A DNA stretch of 64,000 nt from Streptomyces sp. NBC_01689 (lineage in GTDB: Bacteria; Actinomycetota; Actinomycetes; Streptomycetales; Streptomycetaceae). Numbering within the stretch: position 1 is the stretch's first letter; the number at the start of each line of letters is the position of its first letter. The notes beneath the pieces were generated by a model that was not told the DNA's origin, searched no databases, and was given only the letters and a program-made list of their open reading frames with translations. Of the stretch, positions 13,592 to 24,363 are shown piece after piece. The position numbers and the translations under genes were made by a program. The DNA lies in contig NZ_CP109592.1 in assembly GCF_036250675.1 (NCBI RefSeq), positions 3,596,001-3,660,000 of the forward strand, in the 5' to 3' direction.

Positions 13592-14710
13592 ATGAGCAGT
13601 AACGCACCCCGTCGTACCGCGCTCGATGCCCTGCATCGCTCGCTGGGCGCGACGATGACCGACTTCGCGGGCTGGGACATGCCCCTGCGGTACGGCTCGG
13701 AACGCGACGAGCACGTCGCCGTCCGTACCCGGGCCGGTCTCTTCGACCTCTCGCACATGGGCGAGATCACGGTCACCGGCCCGCAGGCGGCCGCGCTGCT
13801 GAACCACGCGCTGGTCGGCAACATCGCCTCGGTCGGCGTGGGCCGCGCCCGCTACACCATGATCTGCCGGGCGGACGGCGGCATCCTCGACGACCTGATC
13901 GTCTACCGGCTGGCCGAGACCGAGTACATGGTCGTCGCCAACGCCTCCAACGCGCAGGTCGTCCTCGACGCGCTGGCCGAGCGCGCCGCCGGATTCGACG
14001 CCGAGGTCCGCGACGACCGGGACGCCTACGCGCTGCTCGCGATCCAGGGTCCCGTGTCCCCCGGCATCCTCAAGTCGCTCACCGACGCCGACCTGGACGG
14101 CCTGAAGTACTACGCGGGCCTGCCGGGGACGGTCGCGGGCGTCCCGGCGCTGATCGCGCGCACCGGCTACACGGGCGAGGACGGCTTCGAGCTCTTCGTG
14201 GCGCCGTCCGACGCCGAGAAGCTGTGGCAGGCGCTGACCGAGGCGGGCGCGCCCGCCGGGCTGGTTCCGTGCGGTCTGTCCTGCCGCGACACGCTGCGCC
14301 TGGAGGCGGGCATGCCGCTGTACGGGCACGAGCTGACCACCTCGCTCACCCCCTTCGACGCGGGGCTCGGACGGGTCGTCAAGTTCGAGAAGGAGGGCGA
14401 CTTCGTGGGCCGTGAGGCCCTGGAGGCCGCCGCCGCACGCGCCGCCGCGAACCCCCCGCGGGTGCTCGTCGGGCTCGTCGCCGAGGGCCGCCGGGTCCCG
14501 CGCGCCGGGTTCGCCGTCGTCGCGGACGGCGTGGCCGTCGGCGAGGTCACGTCCGGCGCTCCCTCCCCGACGCTGGGCCGGCCGATCGCCATGGCCTACG
14601 TCGACGCCGCGCACGCCGCACCGGGCACGTCCGGTGTCGGCGTGGACATCCGGGGCAGCCACGAACCGTACGAGGTCGTGGCCCTGCCGTTCTACAAGCG
14701 TCAGAAGTAG
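13592..14710 (+). CDS. gcvT: Glycine cleavage system T protein (aminomethyltransferase)
   Basis: A 372-residue folate-dependent aminomethyltransferase. It takes the methylamine group from lipoyl-H-protein and makes 5,10-methylene-THF plus ammonia. Typical T-protein segments are present: FAGWDMPLRYGS near the N-terminus, RAGLFDLSHMGEI, the NASN motif, RTGYTGEDGFELF, and RLEAGMPLYGHEL. ATG at 13592 (MSSNAPRRT) has GGGAG eight bases upstream. It is first in a riboswitch-controlled operon with gcvH, glyA and sdaA; the P and L proteins must be encoded elsewhere. Confidence 0.97.
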   Translation: MSSNAPRRTALDALHRSLGATMTDFAGWDMPLRYGSERDEHVAVRTRAGLFDLSHMGEITVTGPQAAALLNHALVGNIASVGVGRARYTMICRADGGILDDLIVYRLAETEYMVVANASNAQVVLDALAERAAGFDAEVRDDRDAYALLAIQGPVSPGILKSLTDADLDGLKYYAGLPGTVAGVPALIARTGYTGEDGFELFVAPSDAEKLWQALTEAGAPAGLVPCGLSCRDTLRLEAGMPLYGHELTTSLTPFDAGLGRVVKFEKEGDFVGREALEAAAARAAANPPRVLVGLVAEGRRVPRAGFAVVADGVAVGEVTSGAPSPTLGRPIAMAYVDAAHAAPGTSGVGVDIRGSHEPYEVVALPFYKRQK

Positions 14711-14854
14711 GTCCGCCGGGGTCCGGGCGCGTCGGCGTGACGTACCCCGTCGCGGCCTGTCCCCTGTCCCTTGGCCGTCCCTCGTCCCGGGACACCCCGC
14801 ACCCCGTCCGTACCCGTTCATCAGCACTCCCCCGCGTACAGGAGAATTCAGGCC

Positions 14855-15232
14855 ATGAGCAACCCCCAGCAGCTGCGCTACAGCAAGGAGCACGAATGGC
14901 TGTCGGCCGCCGAGGACGGCGTCTCGACGGTCGGCATCACCGAGTTCGCGGCCAACGCGCTCGGCGATGTCGTCTACGCCCAGCTTCCGGAGGTCGGTGA
15001 CACGGTGACCGCGGGCGAGTCCTGCGGCGAGCTGGAGTCGACCAAGTCGGTCAGCGACCTGTACGCGCCGGTCACCGGCGAGATCGTGGAGGCCAACCAG
15101 GACGTCGTGGACGACCCGTCGCTGGTCAACTCCGCGCCCTTCGAGGGCGGCTGGCTGTTCAAGGTACGCGTCACGGACGAGCCGGACGACCTGATGTCCG
15201 CCGACGAGTACACCGCCTTCACCGCCGGCTGA
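14855..15232 (+). CDS. gcvH: Glycine cleavage system H protein (lipoyl carrier)
   Basis: A 125-residue H-protein of standard length. The lipoyl-lysine is Lys 64 in [12 protein letters not shown]. It shuttles the aminomethyl group between P, T and L proteins. ATG at 14855 has AGGAGA ten bases upstream; the longer frame from 14771 would add a non-conserved leader. It follows gcvT after 144 bases and is 11 bases from glyA. Confidence 0.97.
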
Positions 15233-15243
15233 GGAGCCACCGC

Positions 15244-16506
15244 ATGTCGCTTCTGAACACGCCCCTGCACGAGCTGGACCCGGACGTCGCGGCCGCCCTC
15301 GACGCCGAGCTGCACCGCCAGCAGTCCACGCTGGAGATGATCGCCTCGGAGAACTTCGCTCCGGTCGCGGTCATGGAGGCCCAGGGCTCGGTCCTGACCA
15401 ACAAGTACGCCGAGGGCTACCCGGGCCGCCGTTACTACGGCGGCTGCGAGCACGTGGACGTCGTCGAGCAGATCGCCATCGACCGGGTCAAGGCGCTGTT
15501 CGGCGCCGAGCACGCGAACGTGCAGCCGCACTCGGGCGCCCAGGCCAACGCGGCCGCGATGTTCGCGCTGCTCAAGCCGGGCGACACGATCATGGGCCTG
15601 AACCTCGCGCACGGCGGGCACCTGACCCACGGCATGAAGATCAACTTCTCCGGCAAGCTCTACGACGTGGTCGCGTACCACGTGGACGAGGAGTCGGGTC
15701 AGGTCGACATGGCCGAGGTCGAGCGCCTCGCCAAGGAGTCCCGGCCGAAGCTGATCGTGGCCGGCTGGTCCGCCTACCCGCGGCAGCTGGACTTCGCCGA
15801 GTTCCGCCGCATCGCCGACGAGGTCGGCGCGTACCTCATGGTCGACATGGCGCACTTCGCCGGCCTGGTGGCCGCGGGGCTGCACCCGAACCCGGTGCCG
15901 CACGCCCACGTCGTCACCACGACCACCCACAAGACGCTGGGCGGCCCGCGCGGCGGTGTGATCCTCTCCACCGCCGAACTGGCCAAGAAGATCAACTCCG
16001 CGGTCTTCCCCGGTCAGCAGGGCGGTCCGCTGGAGCATGTGATCGCCGCGAAGGCGGTCTCCTTCAAGGTCGCCGCCACCGACGACTTCAAGGAGCGCCA
16101 GCAGCGTACGCTCGACGGTGCGCGGATCCTCGCCGAACGTCTGGTGCGGGCCGACGTCACCGAGCACGGCGTCTCGGTCCTGTCGGGCGGCACGGAGGTG
16201 CACCTGGTCCTGGTCGACCTGCGCAACTCCGCGCTGGACGGGCAGCAGGCCGAGGACCGGCTGCACGAGCTCGGCATCACGGTCAACCGGAACGCGATCC
16301 CGAACGACCCGCGGCCCCCGATGGTGACCTCGGGTCTGCGCATCGGCACGCCCGCCCTGGCCACCCGCGGCTTCCAGGCCGAGGACTTCGCCGAGGTCGC
16401 GGACATCATCGCCGAGGCGCTGAAGCCGGTCTACGACGCGGACGCCCTCAAGGCCCGGGTGTCCGCTCTGGCCGACAAGCACCCGCTGTACCCCGGCCTG
16501 AAGTAG
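15244..16506 (+). CDS. glyA: Serine hydroxymethyltransferase
   Basis: A 420-residue PLP enzyme that interconverts glycine plus 5,10-methylene-THF with serine plus THF. The PLP lysine is Lys 230 in [14 protein letters not shown]; the substrate-binding SENF motif (35-38) and the [13 protein letters not shown] segment are intact. Downstream of gcvTH it uses the methylene-THF released by glycine cleavage to make serine, which the next gene product deaminates. It may be a second, catabolic SHMT rather than the housekeeping copy. Confidence 0.97.
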
Positions 16507-16606
16507 TTCGCACGGAACGTACGATTCACCGGGGCGCCGCGCACACTGGAATCACAGGTGTGTGCGGCGCCCACCCCATGCACCACCCCGTTTGCGAGGA
16601 GTTCCC

Positions 16607-17974
<1,368 letters not shown>

Positions 17975-18033: not shown

Positions 18034-19428
18034 TCAGGCGGTGGCGGCCGCGCGCTCGCGCTCGGTCAGGGGCGGCCCGTCCAGCGGGGGCTTCTTCCGG
18101 CCGAGGTAGACCAGGGCCAGCATGTCGGGCATGAGCAGCCGGGCAGGGGGTTTCTCCATGCTCATCACGTCCAGCAGGATGCGCAGGGCGTGCGGGTTGC
18201 GCGAGCCGGCGTCGACGGCCCTGTCCACGAAGGCCGCGAGGTTCTTCTCCAGCCGGGTGGGGGGCTGATCGCTGGCGCCCGGGTAGAACACGTCCTGGCC
18301 CACCGCCAGGTTCCACGCGTTCTCGACCGGGCGGGCCGCGGCTCGCTGGATGCGCCGGGACGTGCCGGGAGCGAGAAGGCCGTGGCGTCGCAGGACGTCG
18401 CGCAGGGCGACGACGCTCTGCGCCGCGGCACTCAGTCCGTGACCGTAGACCGGGTTGTAACCGGCGACCGCCTCGCCGAGGACGGCGAACCCGTCGGGCC
18501 AGCGGGCGGCCTTCTCGTAGTAGCGCCGCTTGTTGGCCGTGCTGCGGGTGGTGACGACGTCCGTCTCGGGCTCGGCCCCCGCGAGGAGTTCGCCGATGAC
18601 GGGGTGCGGCAGCCCGAGCGCGAAGGGGACGAACTCCTCGTTCTTCGCGCTGGGCCGGCCGCCGCGGGTCCCCGCGAGGGTGACCAGCCAGCGGCCGCCC
18701 TCGATGGGCGTGATGATGCCGCCCCTGCCGGGGTTCCGGCGCGGATCGGCCTGGACGTTGACGATCGGGAACCCGTCGGCGGTGGTGCCCGGAGCTCGGT
18801 AGATCCGGCTGGCGTAGCCGACGCCCGCGTCGACTGTGCGTTCGGCCACGGGCGGGAGGCCCAGGCTCCGCAGCCAGGCGGGGGCCCGGCTGCCGCGGCC
18901 GCCGGCGTCGACGACCAGATCGGCGGCGAGGGTGGCATGGGTGTCCCCCGTGCGTATGCGGACTCCGGACACCCGCCCGGAGTCGCCCTCCAGGGACAGG
19001 ACTTCGGTGCGCTGCCGCAGTGAGACGCGCCGGTCCGCCAGCACCCGGGCACGGACCACGGAGTCGAGCAGATCCCGGCTGCAGAGGAGGCTGATGTGGC
19101 GGGCGTGGTGGAAGCGGCGGAACCACTGGCCCGACGGCGCCTTGGAGACCAGGTCGGTCATGATCCGGCTTCGCCGGGCGCCCCGGCCGACGAGTTCGTC
19201 GACGACCCCCGGCAGCAGTTCCTCCAGTGCCTTGACCCCGCCGGACCACAGCACGTGGGCGTGCCGGGCCTGCGGCAGCCCCTTGCGCGGGTGCGGACCG
19301 TCCGGCAGGACGTCGCGTTCGACCAGGGTGACGTCGGCGTGCTCGGCGAGGACGGCCGCCGCGAGCATGCCCGTCATGCCCCCTCCGATGACCACGGCGG
19401 TACGGCGGGAAGCGGCGCTGTCGGGCAT
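18034..19428 (-). CDS. FAD-dependent oxidoreductase (monooxygenase-like)
   Basis: A 464-residue flavoprotein of the PHBH/squalene-epoxidase-like fold. An N-terminal Rossmann motif VIGGGMTGMLAAAVLAEH is followed by VERD at the end of the second strand. A second FAD motif VVDAGGRGSRAP lies near residue 170 and the third, VLGEAVAGYNPVYGHG (GD-type motif with E in place of D), near 310. The substrate is unknown. ATG at 19428 starts MPDSAASRRT. The gene is on the same strand as the MAB_1171c-type block and 383 bases downstream of it, so it may belong to that cluster or have its own promoter. Confidence 0.82.
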   Translation of the reverse strand: MPDSAASRRTAVVIGGGMTGMLAAAVLAEHADVTLVERDVLPDGPHPRKGLPQARHAHVLWSGGVKALEELLPGVVDELVGRGARRSRIMTDLVSKAPSGQWFRRFHHARHISLLCSRDLLDSVVRARVLADRRVSLRQRTEVLSLEGDSGRVSGVRIRTGDTHATLAADLVVDAGGRGSRAPAWLRSLGLPPVAERTVDAGVGYASRIYRAPGTTADGFPIVNVQADPRRNPGRGGIITPIEGGRWLVTLAGTRGGRPSAKNEEFVPFALGLPHPVIGELLAGAEPETDVVTTRSTANKRRYYEKAARWPDGFAVLGEAVAGYNPVYGHGLSAAAQSVVALRDVLRRHGLLAPGTSRRIQRAAARPVENAWNLAVGQDVFYPGASDQPPTRLEKNLAAFVDRAVDAGSRNPHALRILLDVMSMEKPPARLLMPDMLALVYLGRKKPPLDGPPLTERERAAATA

Positions 19429-19811
19429 GTACGGATCTCTCTTCTGTCGCGGGGCCGGAGCGGACGGCGGACCTCGCCCGCCGCACACCACCCCGCATCA
19501 TGCGCGACACCCTGTCGCGGCTGCGAGCGGAGTGGTCCGGGGCCGGCCGCTCACCGGGGTGTGACGGGTCCAGCCGCACCGGTGCGGCGGACAGGTCCGG
19601 CCGAAGGCTTCCCCGCCGAGGGGCGTTTCGATCTTCCGTGGGCGGAGATGCCGGGGGTCACCGCCGGGCGGCGCGGTGCGCCGGTCCGCCCGGGGGTGGT
19701 CCGCCCGGGTGCTGTCCCGTGGCCCTCGGCGGGTGGAGCCGTAGGGCGGACCCGGCCCGGGGAGGTACCGGCCGGGGCGGCGCCCCGGGTGCGGCGGCGC
19801 CCTCGCGCACG
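19429..19811. promoter_or_regulatory. Gap between the 7-TM gene and the FAD oxidoreductase gene
   Basis: This 383-base gap is very GC-rich and non-coding. It contains a perfect 16-base palindrome GCCGCACCGGTGCGGC at 19573-19588, about 145 bases upstream of the oxidoreductase start, and a direct repeat of GGTCCGCCCGGG around 19680-19710. The palindrome is a candidate operator for the oxidoreductase gene or a terminator of the upstream block. No promoter can be called with confidence. Confidence 0.4.
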
Positions 19812-21110
19812 TCAGTCATGGGCGGCGGCCGTCCGGGCGCCCGCCCGCCGGCGGGCCTCCGCCACGATCGGCGACGTCGAGAGCGCGTCCGACAGACGGA
19901 CCATCTGATGCGGCGTCTCCGCGGACCGCAGCGTCCCGACCCGCGCCGGGGGCCCGGCGCCACCCGCGCGGGACGCCTGTACGCCGGCGGCCAGCATCGC
20001 CGCGTCGGCCACGACCGCGGCCCGGTCCACGACGTGCGGGGGCGGCCCCGCGTCCGCGTCCGCCGACGGCGCCCGCGGTGCCGTACGGAAGCGGCCGCCG
20101 ACCGCTCGGGCGAACGCCGCCGGGAGGGCTCTCCCGGCGGCGGGCCCGGCCGCGGTGAGCTGGGCCAGGGCCTCGGCGTACGCGGTCGTGCGCACGTGAT
20201 CGTCGAGGTACGGCGAACAGGCCAGCACACCGTCCCAGATGGCGATCTCCTGACGGGCCAGCCGCACGACGGGCGGATCCCACCAGCGGACGACCCCCTC
20301 CGCCGGCCCGCGCAACGCGTGCAGCTCCGTCCACAGAGGCCTGAGGAGCCGGTGGCGCCGCCAGGCGCGCAGATTGGCCGCCGCCGGCGGGGCGACCCGG
20401 GGGACGGCGAAGCCGCAGGCCACGGTGATCCCGGCGAGCATGACCAGCGGGGGCGAGACGTCGGTGGACAGGAAATCCCAGTCGACGCCCTGCCAACGGG
20501 CGGCCATGGCGGTGTACTTGGCGATCTGGTAGCAGGCGTCGAAAGCCAGCCCGACGACGATCAGGACCAGTCCGGTGCGGGTCACCCCGCGCACCTCCCG
20601 CAGCCAGCCCACGCCCATGGACGCGAGGGCGCCGGTGGCGGCCGTGTGCGCGACCAGGTAGAGCAGGATCATTTCGCGCATGTAGGGCGTGTTCGCGTAG
20701 TACGTGTCCAGGTCCCGGGCCCGTTCCACCGGAACGTCGGCCAGGGCGAACAGCACCCAGATCCCGACGACGGCCGGCCCGTAGAGCCCGAGCACGAGGC
20801 GGTCGGCACGCCGCCGGCGCTCCGGCGGGCCGCCCCTCCACCGGGTCATCAGGACCAGATAGCCCGCGCTGAGCGCCGTCATCCCCGTGTACACCAGGGG
20901 AGCGCTGAAGTTCGCGACACCCGTCGCGTCGTTGACGAACCGGATCGTGGGCGGGGCGGACAGAACGCACACCGCGGAGCCGACGAGCAGGATGCCGGCG
21001 CTGGAGGCGACCAGCGGATCGCGCCAGACCCCGTCGCCGCCCGACAGCTTCAGCACACCGGCCAGCAGCAACAGCACGCCGGGGACGTAGAAGACGACAC
21101 CGCTGTCCAC
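19812..21110 (-). CDS. MAB_1171c-family 7-TM membrane protein (first paralogue)
   Basis: A 432-residue protein with about seven predicted transmembrane helices in the first ~245 residues and a cytoplasmic C-terminal region of about 180 residues. I recognise the layout of the actinobacterial MAB_1171c putative transporter group (soluble part probably the DUF6545 type), whose function is not established. Conserved with its downstream-numbered neighbour: WRDPLV, APPT plus VN and GV, WRGGP, PVER plus D-DTYYA-TP, MI-LYL--H, LST, and LRPLW-EL followed by VRL-R-E--I-DG. GTG at 21110 is the first start in frame. The C-terminal tail is Ala/Arg-rich. Confidence 0.75.
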   Translation of the reverse strand: MDSGVVFYVPGVLLLLAGVLKLSGGDGVWRDPLVASSAGILLVGSAVCVLSAPPTIRFVNDATGVANFSAPLVYTGMTALSAGYLVLMTRWRGGPPERRRRADRLVLGLYGPAVVGIWVLFALADVPVERARDLDTYYANTPYMREMILLYLVAHTAATGALASMGVGWLREVRGVTRTGLVLIVVGLAFDACYQIAKYTAMAARWQGVDWDFLSTDVSPPLVMLAGITVACGFAVPRVAPPAAANLRAWRRHRLLRPLWTELHALRGPAEGVVRWWDPPVVRLARQEIAIWDGVLACSPYLDDHVRTTAYAEALAQLTAAGPAAGRALPAAFARAVGGRFRTAPRAPSADADAGPPPHVVDRAAVVADAAMLAAGVQASRAGGAGPPARVGTLRSAETPHQMVRLSDALSTSPIVAEARRRAGARTAAAHD

Positions 21111-21207
21111 TAGCCCCGCCCGCCTTCCGGGCGGCCGCCGGGCGGCCGCGACGCGGGCCGCGGCACCGCGGGCGGCAACCCCCGCGGGGACGTGACGGGC
21201 CGGGGGG

Positions 21208-22401
21208 TCACCGGGGGGTTCTCTCGTCGTCCGCCGTCACGGGCGCCGGGGCGGCGGTGCGGGCCGCCCCGACGACCGGGGACGTGCGCAACGCGCGCGC
21301 CACGCCCACCAGGGTGGCACGCGACGCGAAGCCCGCGCTGTCCTGGGCGCCGGCCGTCCGGCCCGCGGGCGCGCGGTCGACATGGGCGCGGACCGCGGCG
21401 GCGATCATCGCCGCGAGGCCGATGCGGAAGGCGTCCTCCGCCCCGTACCCCGCGGCGCGGGCCGTGCTCTGCGCGTCGGCCCGGACCCGCCCGTCGAGGT
21501 GCGGGCGGACCAGGTTCAGACCGTCCTGGATGCCCGCCTCACGCCGGGTGAGGCGTACGGCGCAGGACGAGTACCAGGGGATCGGCGCGGCGAGCGGCCT
21601 GGGGGAGGCGCTGCTGAGTTCGCGCCACAGCGGTCCGAGCCGTCTCAGGGTCACCACCGCCCGCCCGGCGGCGACCAGTCGCGGGCCGTACAGCGGCAGC
21701 GTGAAGCCGACGGTGGCGACGGTGGCGGCGAGGCCCACGAGGCCGGGTGCCAGGACGGTGCTCAACACGTCCAGGTCCCGGCCCGCCCACCGGGCCACCA
21801 CCGCGGTCAGCTTCAGCGTGCTGAAGGACAGGTTCAGCAGCCAGCCGGCCACGAGCAGCCACAGGCCGGCCCGCAGCCATCCGTGCACCTGGATCGCCCA
21901 GCGCCAGCACAGCACCGTGGTGGCGACCGCGGCGGTCATGTGGCCGAGCAGATACAGCACGATCATCTGCCCGGTCCACGGCGTGGTCGCGTAGTAGGTG
22001 TCGAAATCCGTCCGCCGCTCGACGGGGGCGCCGCCCCGCACGAAGAGGAGGGCCAGCAGGACGATCACCAGGGCGTAGCCGGTCTGCCAGCGCCGCGCGA
22101 GCCGGCGCACGTGGTCGGCCGGACCACCCCGCCAGTGCAGGATGAGCACGAGGCAGGAGGCGCTGTAGGCGCTGACGACGGCGTAGACCAGGAGGGCGGC
22201 CAGGTTCGGGACGCCGCTCGTCCTGTTCACGGCGGCGACGGTGGGCGGGGCGGCGAAGGCGAAGCCGGCGCCTCCGAGGAAGATCACCCAGCAGACCCAG
22301 CGGACCAGCGGGTCGCGCCAGGACCTCACCAGGTCGGGCAGCTTGGAGGCGAGTCCGGCCCACAGGGCGAGCGCGGGTATGTAGTAGGTCGAGGCGCCCA
22401 C
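21208..22401 (-). CDS. MAB_1171c-family 7-TM membrane protein (second paralogue)
   Basis: A 397-residue paralogue of the next gene, with the same seven-helix layout and C-terminal soluble part. Shared features include SWRDPLVRW, APPTVAAVNRTSGVPN, LHWRGGP, APVERRTDFDTYYATTP, TAVVARWAGRDLDVLST, LGPLWREL and VRLTRREAGIQDGLNL. The invariant Asp/Tyr-rich loop PVER-x2-DxDTYYAxTP between two helices is probably extracytoplasmic and could bind a ligand; that is inference. It starts with GTG at 22401, only three bases after the stop of the HEXXH-protein gene, so the two are translationally linked. Confidence 0.75.
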   Translation of the reverse strand: MGASTYYIPALALWAGLASKLPDLVRSWRDPLVRWVCWVIFLGGAGFAFAAPPTVAAVNRTSGVPNLAALLVYAVVSAYSASCLVLILHWRGGPADHVRRLARRWQTGYALVIVLLALLFVRGGAPVERRTDFDTYYATTPWTGQMIVLYLLGHMTAAVATTVLCWRWAIQVHGWLRAGLWLLVAGWLLNLSFSTLKLTAVVARWAGRDLDVLSTVLAPGLVGLAATVATVGFTLPLYGPRLVAAGRAVVTLRRLGPLWRELSSASPRPLAAPIPWYSSCAVRLTRREAGIQDGLNLVRPHLDGRVRADAQSTARAAGYGAEDAFRIGLAAMIAAAVRAHVDRAPAGRTAGAQDSAGFASRATLVGVARALRTSPVVGAARTAAPAPVTADDERTPR

Positions 22402-22404
22402 GGC

Positions 22405-22959
22405 TCAGCCCTTGGACCGGTGGTGTCCCAGGGACGCGGTGATCCGGCCGGCGATCCGGGTCCGGTCCGTGGCGAGGCCGTCGGCCTCTCCCTCGAGCCA
22501 GACCCGCAGCCGCGTCACCGCCCGCAGGGCGAAGGTCTCCGCGTCCTGTTCCGAACGCTCGTTGAACTCGGTGCGCGCGGCCACGGCCCCCACCGCCCGC
22601 GGCAGATCGGCCCGGTCGCTCAGCACCCGCGCGGCGACCCGGGACCCCGACGTGTGGTGCCCGCAGTCGCCCTGGGTCATGTGCCAGATCTCGTGGCACA
22701 GGATCGCCAGCTGGTGGACGGGAGCGGCCCGCCGGTCGACCACGACGACGTCCTGCTCGGGCAGTTCGAGCCACAGGCCCGTGGCCGTGCCGTGCGGGAA
22801 CTCCTCCTTGAGGAGCACGATCTGACGGCCTCTCATCTCGGCGACCCTGGCCGTCAGCGCGGCGAAGAGCGCGTCGGGGTCCGCGGGGACGGGCAGGGCC
22901 AGTCCGCCGGTCAGCCGCCGGATCAGGTGCCGCATCTCCCTGGCTCTGCCTGTACGCAC
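22405..22959 (-). CDS. ImmA/IrrE-like HEXXH metallopeptidase domain protein
   Basis: A small (184-residue) predicted zinc peptidase. The motif ILCHEIWHMTQGD has the zinc histidines at 89 and 93 and catalytic Glu 90. A later E-x-x-AE-x-FA helix (SEQDAETFALRAV) supplies the third ligand, as in ImmA/IrrE proteins. Members next to XRE regulators often cleave them in response to a signal. GTG at 22959 (VRTGRAREMRHLIRRL) is chosen; GGGGAGG lies close upstream, and ATG at 22935 is possible. Homologues are often labelled toxin in annotation, without evidence known to me. Confidence 0.72.
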   Translation of the reverse strand: MRTGRAREMRHLIRRLTGGLALPVPADPDALFAALTARVAEMRGRQIVLLKEEFPHGTATGLWLELPEQDVVVVDRRAAPVHQLAILCHEIWHMTQGDCGHHTSGSRVAARVLSDRADLPRAVGAVAARTEFNERSEQDAETFALRAVTRLRVWLEGEADGLATDRTRIAGRITASLGHHRSKG

Positions 22960-23162
22960 TGTCCTCCCCGCGAACCTCTGCGTGCACGTCCGGGCCCGGA
23001 GTCCGCCGCCCTGCACGCAAATATGCCAAACCAGCCGCCCCCGCGGCCAGATCAGGCTCTGTCCGGCGCAACAAGTTGCTGGGCCCGAAGTGCCGATCAA
23101 AGAGGACTTGCGCCGGTCTGGCCGTCCCTTGCGCGGTGGATCACCCCCCTGGGGCCCGCCGG

Positions 23163-23909
23163 TCAGCGCACGTCGCGGGGCGGCGCGTCGGCCTCCGGCG
23201 TCGGCGCGCCCTGCTCCTGCGCGCGTTGCACGCCCCGCCCCCGCACGCCCTGCCCACCCTGTGCGTCCTGTGCGTCCTGTGCCCTTCTGCGTTCCAGGAT
23301 GGTGTCGATCCAGTCGGTCACCAACTGGATCTCCTCCTCGGCCAGTTGGGGTGCACGCGCGGCGAGCCTGCGCAGACCGTGCGCGTGGCGCAGGCGGGCC
23401 ATCGGATCGGCGGCCTGTTCCTCCAGGCCGCGCAGCACGGGCTGGAGGGCGTCGTCGAGCGCGGTCTCCGGCTCCGCGGAGAGCCAGCCGTTGGGCTGCC
23501 CGAAATAGAACTTCTCGATGCCCGCCTGGGTGGACGCCAGTGGGCCGCCGGAGCGCCCCGGCCGCTGCTCCGCTCCCCGTCCGGCCGTCCTCCGGCGGCT
23601 GTTGACGAGGTTCGAGAGGGACGCCCGGGAGGCTCCGAAGGCGGCGGCGATCTCCTCGTAGGAGTGCCGCGAGCCGTCCGGCCGGAGTCGCGTCTCCCGC
23701 AGATGACCGAAGCGACGGACGATCCGGTCGGTGATGTCCTCCGCCGGCGGTTCCCCGCCCTCCAGGAGCGCCTCGACGACATCTCGCGGGACACCGCTGT
23801 CGAGGGAGAGCCGTCCGACGTCGAGCACGTCCTCACGGCTCCGCCCGTCCCCGAGGAGGGAATCGATGTGGCTCAGGGTTTCGGCGAGCCCCCGGCGCGC
23901 TTCACTCAC
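23163..23909 (-). CDS. XRE-type helix-turn-helix regulator
   Basis: A 248-residue DNA-binding protein. A helix-turn-helix is clear in SYEEIAAAFGASRASLSNL (about 83-101), followed by IEKFYFGQPNGWL, the stretch that follows the HTH in SinR/XRE-like regulators. The N-terminal 80 residues and the middle (ALDDALQPVLRGLEEQA, then a helical segment ending near IDTILERRR) have no function I can name; the last ~45 residues are Gln/Ala/Gly-rich. GTG at 23909 has AGGAG eight bases upstream. It leads the minus-strand block and is divergent from the lysozyme gene. Confidence 0.75.
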   Translation of the reverse strand: MSEARRGLAETLSHIDSLLGDGRSREDVLDVGRLSLDSGVPRDVVEALLEGGEPPAEDITDRIVRRFGHLRETRLRPDGSRHSYEEIAAAFGASRASLSNLVNSRRRTAGRGAEQRPGRSGGPLASTQAGIEKFYFGQPNGWLSAEPETALDDALQPVLRGLEEQAADPMARLRHAHGLRRLAARAPQLAEEEIQLVTDWIDTILERRRAQDAQDAQGGQGVRGRGVQRAQEQGAPTPEADAPPRDVR

Positions 23910-24363
23910 CAGCAGGTCTCCTGGGCTCGGGTGGGGGCGTTGGCTACGGATCGACGTCCGAGACCCTAGCCCTTGCGGGGACCGGGCAGCCAGAGCACCG
24001 GACACATCGTCAGCCGTACACGGCTACAACAGTTGACACGTATGGCGGTGGGTTGCAGGATCATGACACGACGTGAGGGCCGGTCGTCCGGTGCGGGCGT
24101 GGGGGCCCGCGGGTGTTCCGGTCCCGGGTCCACGGAGTGTCGCCGGACCGCCGCCGTGCACCGTTCAGGTGTGCACGCCGGCGGTCCGGACCGACTCCCG
24201 CAGGTGGCGCGCGGCGGGGGTCGACCGGTCGTTCGAGGGTGGGACCGGGGATGTGGGGGAACGTCACCCGGAGAGGTCGCAAGACCCGTGAAACCCGGAA
24301 TCCACCCCCCGCCCAGGGGCACAATCGCTCGCACCGTCCCCCCACGCACGGAGGAGTCGCTCC
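23910..24363. promoter_or_regulatory. Divergent control region with promoter, palindrome and long-stem hairpin
   Basis: On the plus strand TTGACA (24033-24038) and CAGGAT (24056-24061) with a 17-base spacer form a good vegetative promoter, giving a ~295-base leader for the lysozyme gene. AGCCGT-AC-ACGGCT (24012-24025) lies just upstream of the -35 and could bind the divergent XRE regulator. Inside the leader, 24143-24161 pairs with 24171-24189 (19 bases, one mismatch, nine-base loop). That stem could stall or terminate transcription before the lysozyme gene; it has no U-tract. The start of GH25 has CGGAGGAG nine bases upstream. No coding sequence is supported in the region. Confidence 0.5.

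What the first reader, a model, noticed from the sequence alone, without database searches (positions are those of the whole stretch)
18034..23909. XRE regulator, ImmA/IrrE-like peptidase and two 7-TM MAB_1171c-type paralogues with an FAD oxidoreductase: a candidate unstudied signalling module
Seen: five minus-strand genes in order HTH, HEXXH peptidase, 7-TM protein, 7-TM protein, flavoprotein. The peptidase stop and the next start are three bases apart. The two 7-TM proteins share motifs (WRDPLV, PVER-x2-DxDTYYAxTP loop, LST, C-terminal L-R-x-E-x2-I-x-DG). Known: ImmA/IrrE peptidases cut XRE repressors in ICEBs1 and Deinococcus. Inferred: the 7-TM proteins sense a ligand through the DTYYA loop and pass a signal to the peptidase, which releases the XRE regulator, with the flavoprotein as output or ligand maker. 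I know of no experiment on this arrangement.
Basis: partly seen in the sequence, partly recalled or inferred. Interest (0 to 1): 0.85.

Follow-up and report, generated by a model that had tools for sequence, protein, structure and literature searches.

The report
Membrane-protein, peptidase and EspR-like regulator module
A three-gene unit (a DNA-binding regulator, a zinc peptidase and a seven-helix membrane protein) recurs across actinobacteria, and its regulator belongs to the family of EspR, a known virulence regulator of mycobacteria, which suggests that EspR began as the output of a membrane-signalled protein-cutting switch.

Summary
In detail: five minus-strand genes (regulator, HEXXH peptidase, two 7-TM paralogues, flavoenzyme) at 18034-23909 of a Streptomyces-type chromosome. 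It is a real, widespread module. The peptidase lies directly before 88 of 104 MAB_1171c-type genes in fetched loci. In 296 class genomes, all 62 with a strong peptidase hit also have the 7-TM gene and the regulator. Across 42 divergent peptidases only H81, E82, H85 and E129 are invariant, the zinc-site pattern of ImmA/IrrE (M78). The regulator family includes mycobacterial EspR (profile E 8e-44). The 7-TM gene is in 62 of 118 mycobacterial genomes, nearly always beside espR. In 40 genomes examined without it, EspR's C-terminal linker (RIAARTVGLS) has drifted; its DNA-binding domain has not. Tree distances fit a chain 7-TM - peptidase - regulator. The flavoprotein is a Lsd18/MonCI-type epoxidase, an exchangeable accessory. 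A conserved box (24023-24038) occurs exactly twice in the genome, both times before such modules. Best reading: the 7-TM protein controls a peptidase that cuts an EspR-type regulator in its C-terminal linker. A whole-word search found no paper holding both EspR and ImmA.

The parts
23163..23909 (-). EspR-family HTH regulator (HTH about aa 83-106; C-terminal helical domain)
23331..23375 (-). aa 179-193 LRRLAARAPQLAEEE: family-conserved C-terminal linker (R185 in 37 of 41), proposed peptidase recognition/cleavage segment (inferred)
22405..22935 (-). M78 (ImmA/IrrE)-like zinc peptidase; relatives named 'toxin' in public records
22681..22695 (-). HEIWH, aa 81-85; H81, E82, H85 invariant in 42 divergent relatives
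22549..22551 (-). E129, presumed third zinc ligand, invariant in 42 divergent relatives
21208..22401 (-). 7TM-1, MAB_1171c/DUF6545 family: seven hydrophobic segments (family average), read as N-out/C-in, cytosolic C-terminal DUF6545 region
21979..22002 (-). DTYYATTP in predicted outer loop 4 of 7TM-1 (lineage-specific)
19812..21110 (-). 7TM-2, tandem paralogue of 7TM-1
18034..19428 (-). flavin-dependent epoxidase of the Lsd18/LasC/MonCI family
   Evidence: E 2.8e-114
24023..24038 (-). conserved upstream box TGTCAACTRTYGTRGC, 129 nt before the regulator start: candidate operator or promoter element

Best explanation
The regulator, peptidase and 7-TM protein form one transmembrane signalling module. 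The 7-TM protein (N-out, C-in, cytosolic DUF6545 tail) receives a signal at the membrane, perhaps a hydrophobic molecule, and switches the cytosolic M78-type zinc peptidase on or off. The peptidase recognises and cuts the EspR-type regulator in the linker between its C-terminal (dimerisation) helices, so that the regulator can no longer dimerise and its target promoters, including its own through the upstream box, change state. The epoxidase is an exchangeable effector or ligand-modifying enzyme. Shown here: the module, its conservation, the invariant zinc-site set, M78 relatedness, EspR relatedness, chain-like co-evolution, the linker constraint, the box. Inferred: zinc binding, cleavage and its site, sensing, direction of control, role of the box and of the epoxidase.
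For: Peptidase directly before 88 of 104 7-TM genes (one search prints 89; one tandem gene in L118 was credited by an over-long match); regulator within 3 kb in 75 of 104. In 296 class genomes: peptidase (E<1e-15) 62, 7-TM 58 by NF042915 and present in the other four too, regulator in all 62. Only H81, E82, H85, E129 invariant in 42 divergent peptidases; profile match to 17 M78 proteins 97.4%, E 1.3e-11, controls at most 0.3%. Regulator profile hits EspR structures at E 8e-44; without rows of the mycobacterial family it hits EspR at 1.9e-48 to 5.8e-47. Partial tree-distance correlations over 66 systems: regulator-peptidase given 7-TM 0.46, peptidase-7-TM given regulator 0.70, regulator-7-TM given peptidase -0.04. 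Linker 103-111 identity 0.927 in 47 distinct EspR with the pair against 0.574 in 40 without it; DNA-binding part 0.944 against 0.942. Precedents: ImmA cuts ImmR at F95-M96 between two predicted C-terminal helices (PMC8960796, passages); PprI cuts DdrO between L108 and R109 (PMC4374696, passages); EspR without its last 10 residues neither dimerises nor activates espACD (PMC3315491, passages).
Against: No structure, interaction or biochemical result. The linker result rests on two losses by parsimony, one of them a 39-tip clade, on a tree with some weak nodes, so a changed role of EspR in that clade could explain it. Tree correlation can come from linked inheritance alone. Streptomyces also has regulator-peptidase pairs with no 7-TM gene in the stretch fetched (L269-L279, L282) and peptidase-7-TM-epoxidase units without an adjacent regulator (e.g. 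L111, L113, L116, L119-L125). 25 of 113 regulators stand alone and 5 of 112 peptidases do. The 7-TM family has no relative by profile in the PDB. The window regulator alone is not significantly EspR-like (E 0.02). The box is missing from 5 of 24 window-type regulator loci.
Confidence: 0.6

Rival explanations
1. The 7-TM protein is a transporter ('MAB_1171c family putative transporter'); the peptidase/regulator pair only controls its expression in response to a cytosolic signal.
For: The NCBIfam name; a MAB_1171c knockout in M. abscessus lost about half its biofilm and is listed among the 'MIC mutants' of surface transport (PMC8707978, passages).
Against: No substrate is shown in the passages seen; that the family name rests on that screen is my guess. 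Apart from M1, the columns at least 75% identical start at R177 and 12 of 17 lie in the cytosolic tail. The 7-TM tree follows the peptidase, not the regulator, once the peptidase is accounted for.
Confidence: 0.17
2. A toxin-antitoxin pair: the peptidase is a toxin neutralised by the regulator, as its public name says.
For: Records name it 'toxin'; XRE plus zinc-peptidase (COG2856) pairs were predicted as toxin-antitoxin systems (PMC2701414, passages); copies on plasmids and a phage.
Against: A third, membrane gene is present in every one of 62 peptidase genomes; espR persists without the 7-TM gene in 55 of 117 EspR-bearing mycobacterial genomes, and without the peptidase too in the 40 loci checked, which does not suit addiction; no PADLOC hit; the M78 proteins ImmA and PprI cut repressors.
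Confidence: 0.08
3. The peptidase cuts the 7-TM protein (or another membrane substrate) and the regulator is only the autoregulator of the operon.
For: Strong peptidase-7-TM co-evolution (partial r 0.70) and tightly coupled reading frames (57 of 67 gaps at most 20 nt).
Against: Regulator-peptidase pairs exist without a nearby 7-TM gene; the EspR linker loses constraint where the pair is absent.
Confidence: 0.07
4. The peptidase has become a non-cutting adaptor that binds the regulator and ties it to the membrane protein.
For: Binding alone would also explain co-evolution and the linker constraint.
Against: Invariance of the four zinc-site residues and of no other column among relatives 19-55% identical to the window's argues for catalysis or at least zinc.
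Confidence: 0.08

Closest known systems
ImmR-ImmA of ICEBs1 and DdrO-IrrE/PprI of Deinococcus (M78 peptidase plus XRE repressor)
   Same: Small XRE-type regulator with a C-terminal helical domain next to a HEXXH...E peptidase related to M78.
   Different: Those pairs, as recalled, have no dedicated membrane partner; here a 7-TM gene accompanies the peptidase in all 62 genomes with a strong hit. The regulator is EspR-like. Cleavage is not shown here.
EspR (Rv3849), ESX-1 regulator and nucleoid-associated protein of mycobacteria
   Same: Family profile match E 8e-44; the 7-TM gene is in 62 of 118 mycobacterial genomes and 63 of 65 places compared lie within 383 nt of an espR-type gene, with the peptidase in all 59 such loci checked.
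   Different: No peptidase or membrane partner is mentioned in the passages of PMC3315491 seen; the window regulator is longer (248 against 132 aa) and distant.
MAB_1171c family (NF042915) / DUF6545
   Same: 7TM-1 passes both models; 7TM-2 passes DUF6545.
   Different: Known as a 'putative transporter'; the one paper found (PMC8707978, passages) is a knockout screen and the passages seen give no link to peptidase or EspR.
BlaR1-BlaI and MecR1-MecI (recalled)
   Same: Logic: membrane sensor plus zinc protease relieves a DNA-binding repressor.
   Different: There, as recalled, sensor and protease are one protein of another peptidase family; here they are separate genes.
Lsd18/LasC and MonCI polyether epoxidases
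   Same: The flavoprotein matches them over its full length, E 2.8e-114.
   Different: Here it stands beside a signalling module; substrate unknown.

Membership tests
M78 (ImmA/IrrE) peptidases | HEXXH plus downstream glutamate | tested here: met
   invariant in 42 of 42 divergent members
M78 (ImmA/IrrE) peptidases | Pfam PF06114 curated cut-off | tested here: not met
   window protein 12.3 bits against 22; 17 of 42 family members match at E<=0.01; one member (G050:C120) passes with 25.8 bits
M78 (ImmA/IrrE) peptidases | profile-profile relationship | tested here: met
   hhalign 97.4%, E 1.3e-11, 113 columns, against 17 M78 proteins (from 30 fetched loci); ten column-shuffled controls and two partner families at most 0.3%
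M78 (ImmA/IrrE) peptidases | cuts its XRE-type regulator | not testable with these tools
   needs biochemistry
EspR family | full-length profile similarity to EspR | tested here: met
   family profile E 8e-44 (one EspR row in it); profile of 52 rows without the mycobacterial family 1.9e-48 to 5.8e-47, best non-family hit 4e-4; 13 window-type Streptomyces rows 1.4e-8 to 1.4e-7, best non-family hit 0.01
EspR family | window protein alone matches EspR | tested here: inconclusive
   E 0.02, best non-family hit 0.2
EspR family | DNA binding and dimerisation through the C-terminal domain | not testable with these tools
   -
MAB_1171c family NF042915 | model cut-off 100 bits | tested here: inconclusive
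   7TM-1 137 bits (met), 7TM-2 87 bits (not met)
MAB_1171c family NF042915 | transport activity | not testable with these tools
   named 'putative transporter' only
Lsd18/MonCI epoxidases | full-length homology to solved members | tested here: met
   query 7-459 of 464, E 2.8e-114
Lsd18/MonCI epoxidases | epoxidises a polyene | not testable with these tools
   -
toxin-antitoxin system | a model of PADLOC-DB | tested here: not met
   0 hits for the five proteins
BlaR1/MecR1-type sensor-protease | sensor and protease in one polypeptide | tested here: not met
   separate genes in the window; no called protein labelled with both profiles

The most novel reading that the evidence does not exclude
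Actinobacteria possess a widespread three-component transmembrane proteolytic signalling system (7-TM receptor, M78 peptidase, EspR-type regulator). EspR of mycobacteria is its output protein.
Probability: 0.5. Interest if true: 0.9.

Novelty: new variant of a known kind. Interest (0 to 1): 0.8.

Why it matters
It would give EspR, studied as an orphan regulator, an ancestral partner set and an upstream input; assign a testable role to a family now named only 'putative transporter' or DUF6545; correct many 'toxin' annotations; and add a split, receptor-coupled version to the ImmA/IrrE kind of protease switch. It makes concrete predictions: a cleavage segment (AxRAxxL between the C-terminal helices), an operator (24023-24038) and exchangeable downstream enzymes that may reveal the ligand class.

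Tried and rejected
Own error: searches used the peptidase one base out of frame (22405-22936) and are discarded; repeated in frame for the PDB search and the protein search; the own-genome peptidases come. Paper searches by word start for EspR plus ImmA and for ImmA/IrrE in Streptomyces returned noise; the whole-word search gave 0 papers with EspR and ImmA; the listings show no title or abstract start on this arrangement, and of those papers I read only passages of PMC4374696, PMC8960796, PMC3315491 and PMC2701414. DUF6545: 0 papers. The library holds open-licence papers only. Viral contig scans with the phage peptidase, the window peptidase and 7TM-1 found no relative. No sigma-70 promoter or terminator pattern; the inverted repeats were not followed up. 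7-TM profile against PDB: three hits at E 0.05-0.7, taken as chance. Considered and rejected: the DTYYA loop as universal ligand site (9 of 50); the flavoprotein as core component (25 of 104).

Biases and rows dropped: the loci were chosen for a 7-TM hit; nine weak places (E above 1e-4: G124, G195, G286, G054, G130, G470 twice, G394, G363) were not fetched; six fetched loci gave no 7-TM match over 500 nt (L151, L153-L157). The peptidase and regulator profiles were grown inside these loci. In some searches only 6 or 12 first-look candidates per genome were scored. One search used regulator rows at E<=1e-8, peptidase rows at E<1e-15 and 7-TM rows at E<1e-5, typed; weaker rows, short matches for the most part, were left out (one search has 88 genomes at E<=0.001, 62 of them used). 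In one search three fragment rows were left out and only part of the EspR rows typed; the two exceptions are G582 (1,638 nt) and a second, weak G642 place (2,329 nt). The box was picked by eye before counting, so its expected number (0.006) is not a blind test; with up to two mismatches the genome gives four matches and the reversed control five. The 19 box loci are the window plus 18 of the L004 type, many of them orthologues; five more distant window-type loci (L099, L104, L115, L126, L137) lack it. The first linker comparison used loci chosen for similarity and was biased; it was redone on 99 loci, not every genome with EspR; the linker bounds were set. One search reports a stop in the 7-TM match of three genomes; of these L352 (G568) has A104S in EspR and L351 (G593) has the intact motif. 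Fisher p-values ignore kinship.
Full report
1. What is there. Public relatives of the peptidase (52 rows, one of them the window's own) are, where named, mostly called 'toxin' or 'toxin-antitoxin system, toxin component', in Streptomyces. Relatives of the regulator (105) are mostly 'hypothetical protein'. The window lies in a 9.96 Mb genome of Streptomyces type. The same genome holds a second copy of the arrangement, regulator - peptidase (HELWH) - 7-TM - epoxidase, at C1:2482461-2486366 (L004 6462-10367), and a third peptidase relative at C1:6593665 with no regulator or 7-TM nearby.

2. Is it a module? From 7-TM (NF042915) hits in two overlapping samples of 296 genomes, one of the phylum and one of the class, I fetched 100 neighbourhoods and added L004 and the window. 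By family profiles in six frames: 104 7-TM genes in 96 loci; peptidase directly upstream on the same strand in 88 (one search prints 89; the second gene of the L118 tandem was credited by an over-long match); regulator within 3 kb on either strand in 75; both in 67; epoxidase downstream in 25. Of the 16 without an upstream peptidase, five are the second or later gene of a tandem set (L090, L104, L117, L118, window) and three have the peptidase a little further off (L059, L085, L115). Of 67 peptidase-7-TM gaps between called genes, 57 are at most 20 nt and 35 are overlaps of 1 or 4 nt. Conversely, a search of the 296 class genomes with peptidase and regulator profiles: 112 peptidases (E<1e-15), of which 107 lie within 3.5 kb of a regulator or 7-TM gene; 113 regulators (E<=1e-8), of which 88 lie near a peptidase or 7-TM and 25 alone. 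By genome: peptidase 62, 7-TM 58 by NF042915, regulator 69. All 58 7-TM genomes have the peptidase, and the other four peptidase genomes also have a 7-TM gene (G050, G235, G560; G419). The peptidase profile was built from module members, so it may miss peptidases elsewhere.

3. The peptidase. In 42 members (19-55% identical to the window's) the only invariant columns are H81, E82, H85, E129. Single-sequence Pfam matches to M78 are weak (17 of 42 members at E<=0.01), but profile-profile comparison with 17 M78 proteins (the usable ones of 30 Pfam-detected loci from the same class) gives 97.4% and E 1.3e-11 over 113 columns, against at most 0.3% for ten column-shuffled controls and the two partner families.

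4. The regulator is of the EspR family. A profile of 41 module regulators finds EspR structures 3r1f, 4ndw and 3qf3 at E 8e-44 to 9e-44. That profile holds one mycobacterial EspR row (and two other rows of the same family). A profile of 52 rows without that family finds EspR at 1.9e-48 to 5.8e-47 (first five rows; best non-family protein 4e-4), one of 13 window-type Streptomyces rows at 1.4e-8 to 1.4e-7 (best non-family 0.01), and the window protein alone only at 0.02.

5. Mycobacteria. EspR is in 117 of 118 genomes sampled, the 7-TM gene in 62. Of 65 7-TM places compared, 63 lie within 383 nt of an espR-type gene. All 59 espR loci with a 7-TM gene that were checked also hold the peptidase. 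In named records, 79 of the 80 closest espR loci (of 290 relatives) carry peptidase and 7-TM, convergent with espR; the 80th ends at a contig edge. In the first 20 loci examined without the pair, espR is directly followed by the gene that otherwise lies beyond the pair, with no remnant at tblastn E 1e-3. On a tree of 68 loci, with some weak nodes, parsimony needs two losses: one leading to a 39-tip clade, one to a single genome (L300).

6. The linker. Among 99 espR loci (47 distinct proteins with the pair, 40 without), the DNA-binding part (1-85) is equally conserved (mean identity 0.944 and 0.942). The C-terminal part (86-131) differs (0.854 against 0.649) and the linker 103-111 most (0.927 against 0.574). 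With the pair, A104, R105, T106, V107 and G108 are kept in 46 or 47 of 47, including the deep-branching L346-L348; without it they vary. The single-genome loss L300 has RIASRSVGLS against RIAARTVGLS in its sister. Family-wide the same segment holds the most conserved residue of the C-terminal stretch tabulated, R185 of the window protein, in 37 of 41. In ImmR and DdrO the cut lies in the C-terminal part, and EspR without its last ten residues no longer dimerises. I therefore propose this linker as the recognition or cleavage segment. A changed role of EspR in the large clade is the main alternative.

7. Order of contact. In 66 complete systems tree distances correlate: regulator-peptidase 0.62, peptidase-7-TM 0.78, regulator-7-TM 0.46; in 26 Streptomyces systems 0.80, 0.83, 0.73; 0 of 2000 permutations reached any of these. 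Partial correlations leave regulator-7-TM at -0.04 (all; 669 of 1000 permutations at least as high) and 0.18 (Streptomyces; 13 of 1000) once the peptidase is accounted for, while the other two stay at 0.46-0.70. This fits a relay 7-TM - peptidase - regulator, though linked inheritance also produces correlation. Streptomyces further splits the unit: regulator-peptidase pairs with no 7-TM gene in the stretch fetched (L269-L279, L282) and peptidase-7-TM-epoxidase units without an adjacent regulator (among L111-L127).

8. The 7-TM protein. Family-averaged hydropathy shows seven segments, and loop charges fit N-out/C-in (my reading); apart from M1, columns at least 75% identical start at R177, and 12 of 17 lie in the cytosolic tail. 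The DTYYA motif is in 9 of 50 members. No relative by profile in the PDB. The only experiment found is the M. abscessus MAB_1171c knockout: about 50% less biofilm, listed among the 'MIC mutants' (PMC8707978, passages).

9. Accessory enzymes. The flavoprotein belongs with Lsd18/LasC and MonCI. Elsewhere the gene after the 7-TM can be a PAP2-like membrane protein (three of four tested, one over Pfam's cut-off), amidase, amidohydrolase, short-chain dehydrogenase or methyltransferase (one tested each); an acyl-CoA dehydrogenase follows the epoxidase at L068. In phage Adler the gene after the 7-TM is annotated in one of two records as a cytochrome P450. Several of these act on lipids or other hydrophobic molecules, which hints at the ligand class; no more than a hint.

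10. Control region. TGTCAACTRTYGTRGC lies upstream of the window regulator and of 18 L004-type regulators (19 loci), but not of five more distant window-type ones. The 18 also have GCCACAGYTGTGGC 44 nt on; the window does not. In the window's genome the box occurs without mismatch exactly twice, both before the two regulator-peptidase modules; at up to two mismatches it is at chance level (4 against 5 for the reversed pattern). In the loci held at that point (3.19 Mb, some overlapping) it occurs only in module loci.

11. Mobility. A Streptomyces plasmid carries the same five-gene order (NZ_CP108815); 21 plasmid records, all Streptomyces, hold a 7-TM relative. Mycobacterium phage Adler carries regulator, peptidase and 7-TM in a row (profile E 5e-38, 9e-45, 1e-49). 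Three viral contig scans found none.

12. Verdict. The module is real, widespread and, as far as the searches run here go, undescribed as such; regulator-peptidase pairs as a class are known (PMC2701414, passages). It works, most likely, like ImmA-ImmR with a membrane receptor in front. Cleavage is the untested centre of the claim.

Noticed in passing
L342 (KC960489 2649-11029), 3480-7093: Mycobacterium phage Adler (95.7 kb, host M. abscessus) carries regulator, peptidase and 7-TM as consecutive genes, followed by a P450-like gene.
   Followed up: partly
L004 5589-6242; similar genes in L270, L272, L277, L282: A gene with a MmyB-like ligand-binding domain (PF17765 in L004; the others by likeness) lies divergently beside the regulator of the second module and of regulator-peptidase pairs; the palindrome GCCACAGYTGTGGC lies between.
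   Followed up: partly
L268 6564-7208 (G000:C1:6593665) and L281 5935-6591: A lone relative of the peptidase with neither regulator nor 7-TM in the stretch fetched; neighbours look like acyl-CoA synthetase and carboxyltransferase genes (by eye).
   Followed up: no
L343 2750-7939 (NZ_CP108815): A Streptomyces plasmid with exactly the five-gene order of the window.
   Followed up: partly
L104, L115: Variants in which the epoxidase lies between two 7-TM genes (L104) or between peptidase and 7-TM (L115).
   Followed up: no
window 13592-17974: Genes resembling gcvT, gcvH, glyA and an L-serine dehydratase run convergent to the module (named from recall, not searched).
   Followed up: no
L103, L106: Two regulator-peptidase-7-TM units in direct tandem, twice in one genome (G485); the gene after one L103 unit is PAP2-like, the others were not tested.
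   Followed up: no
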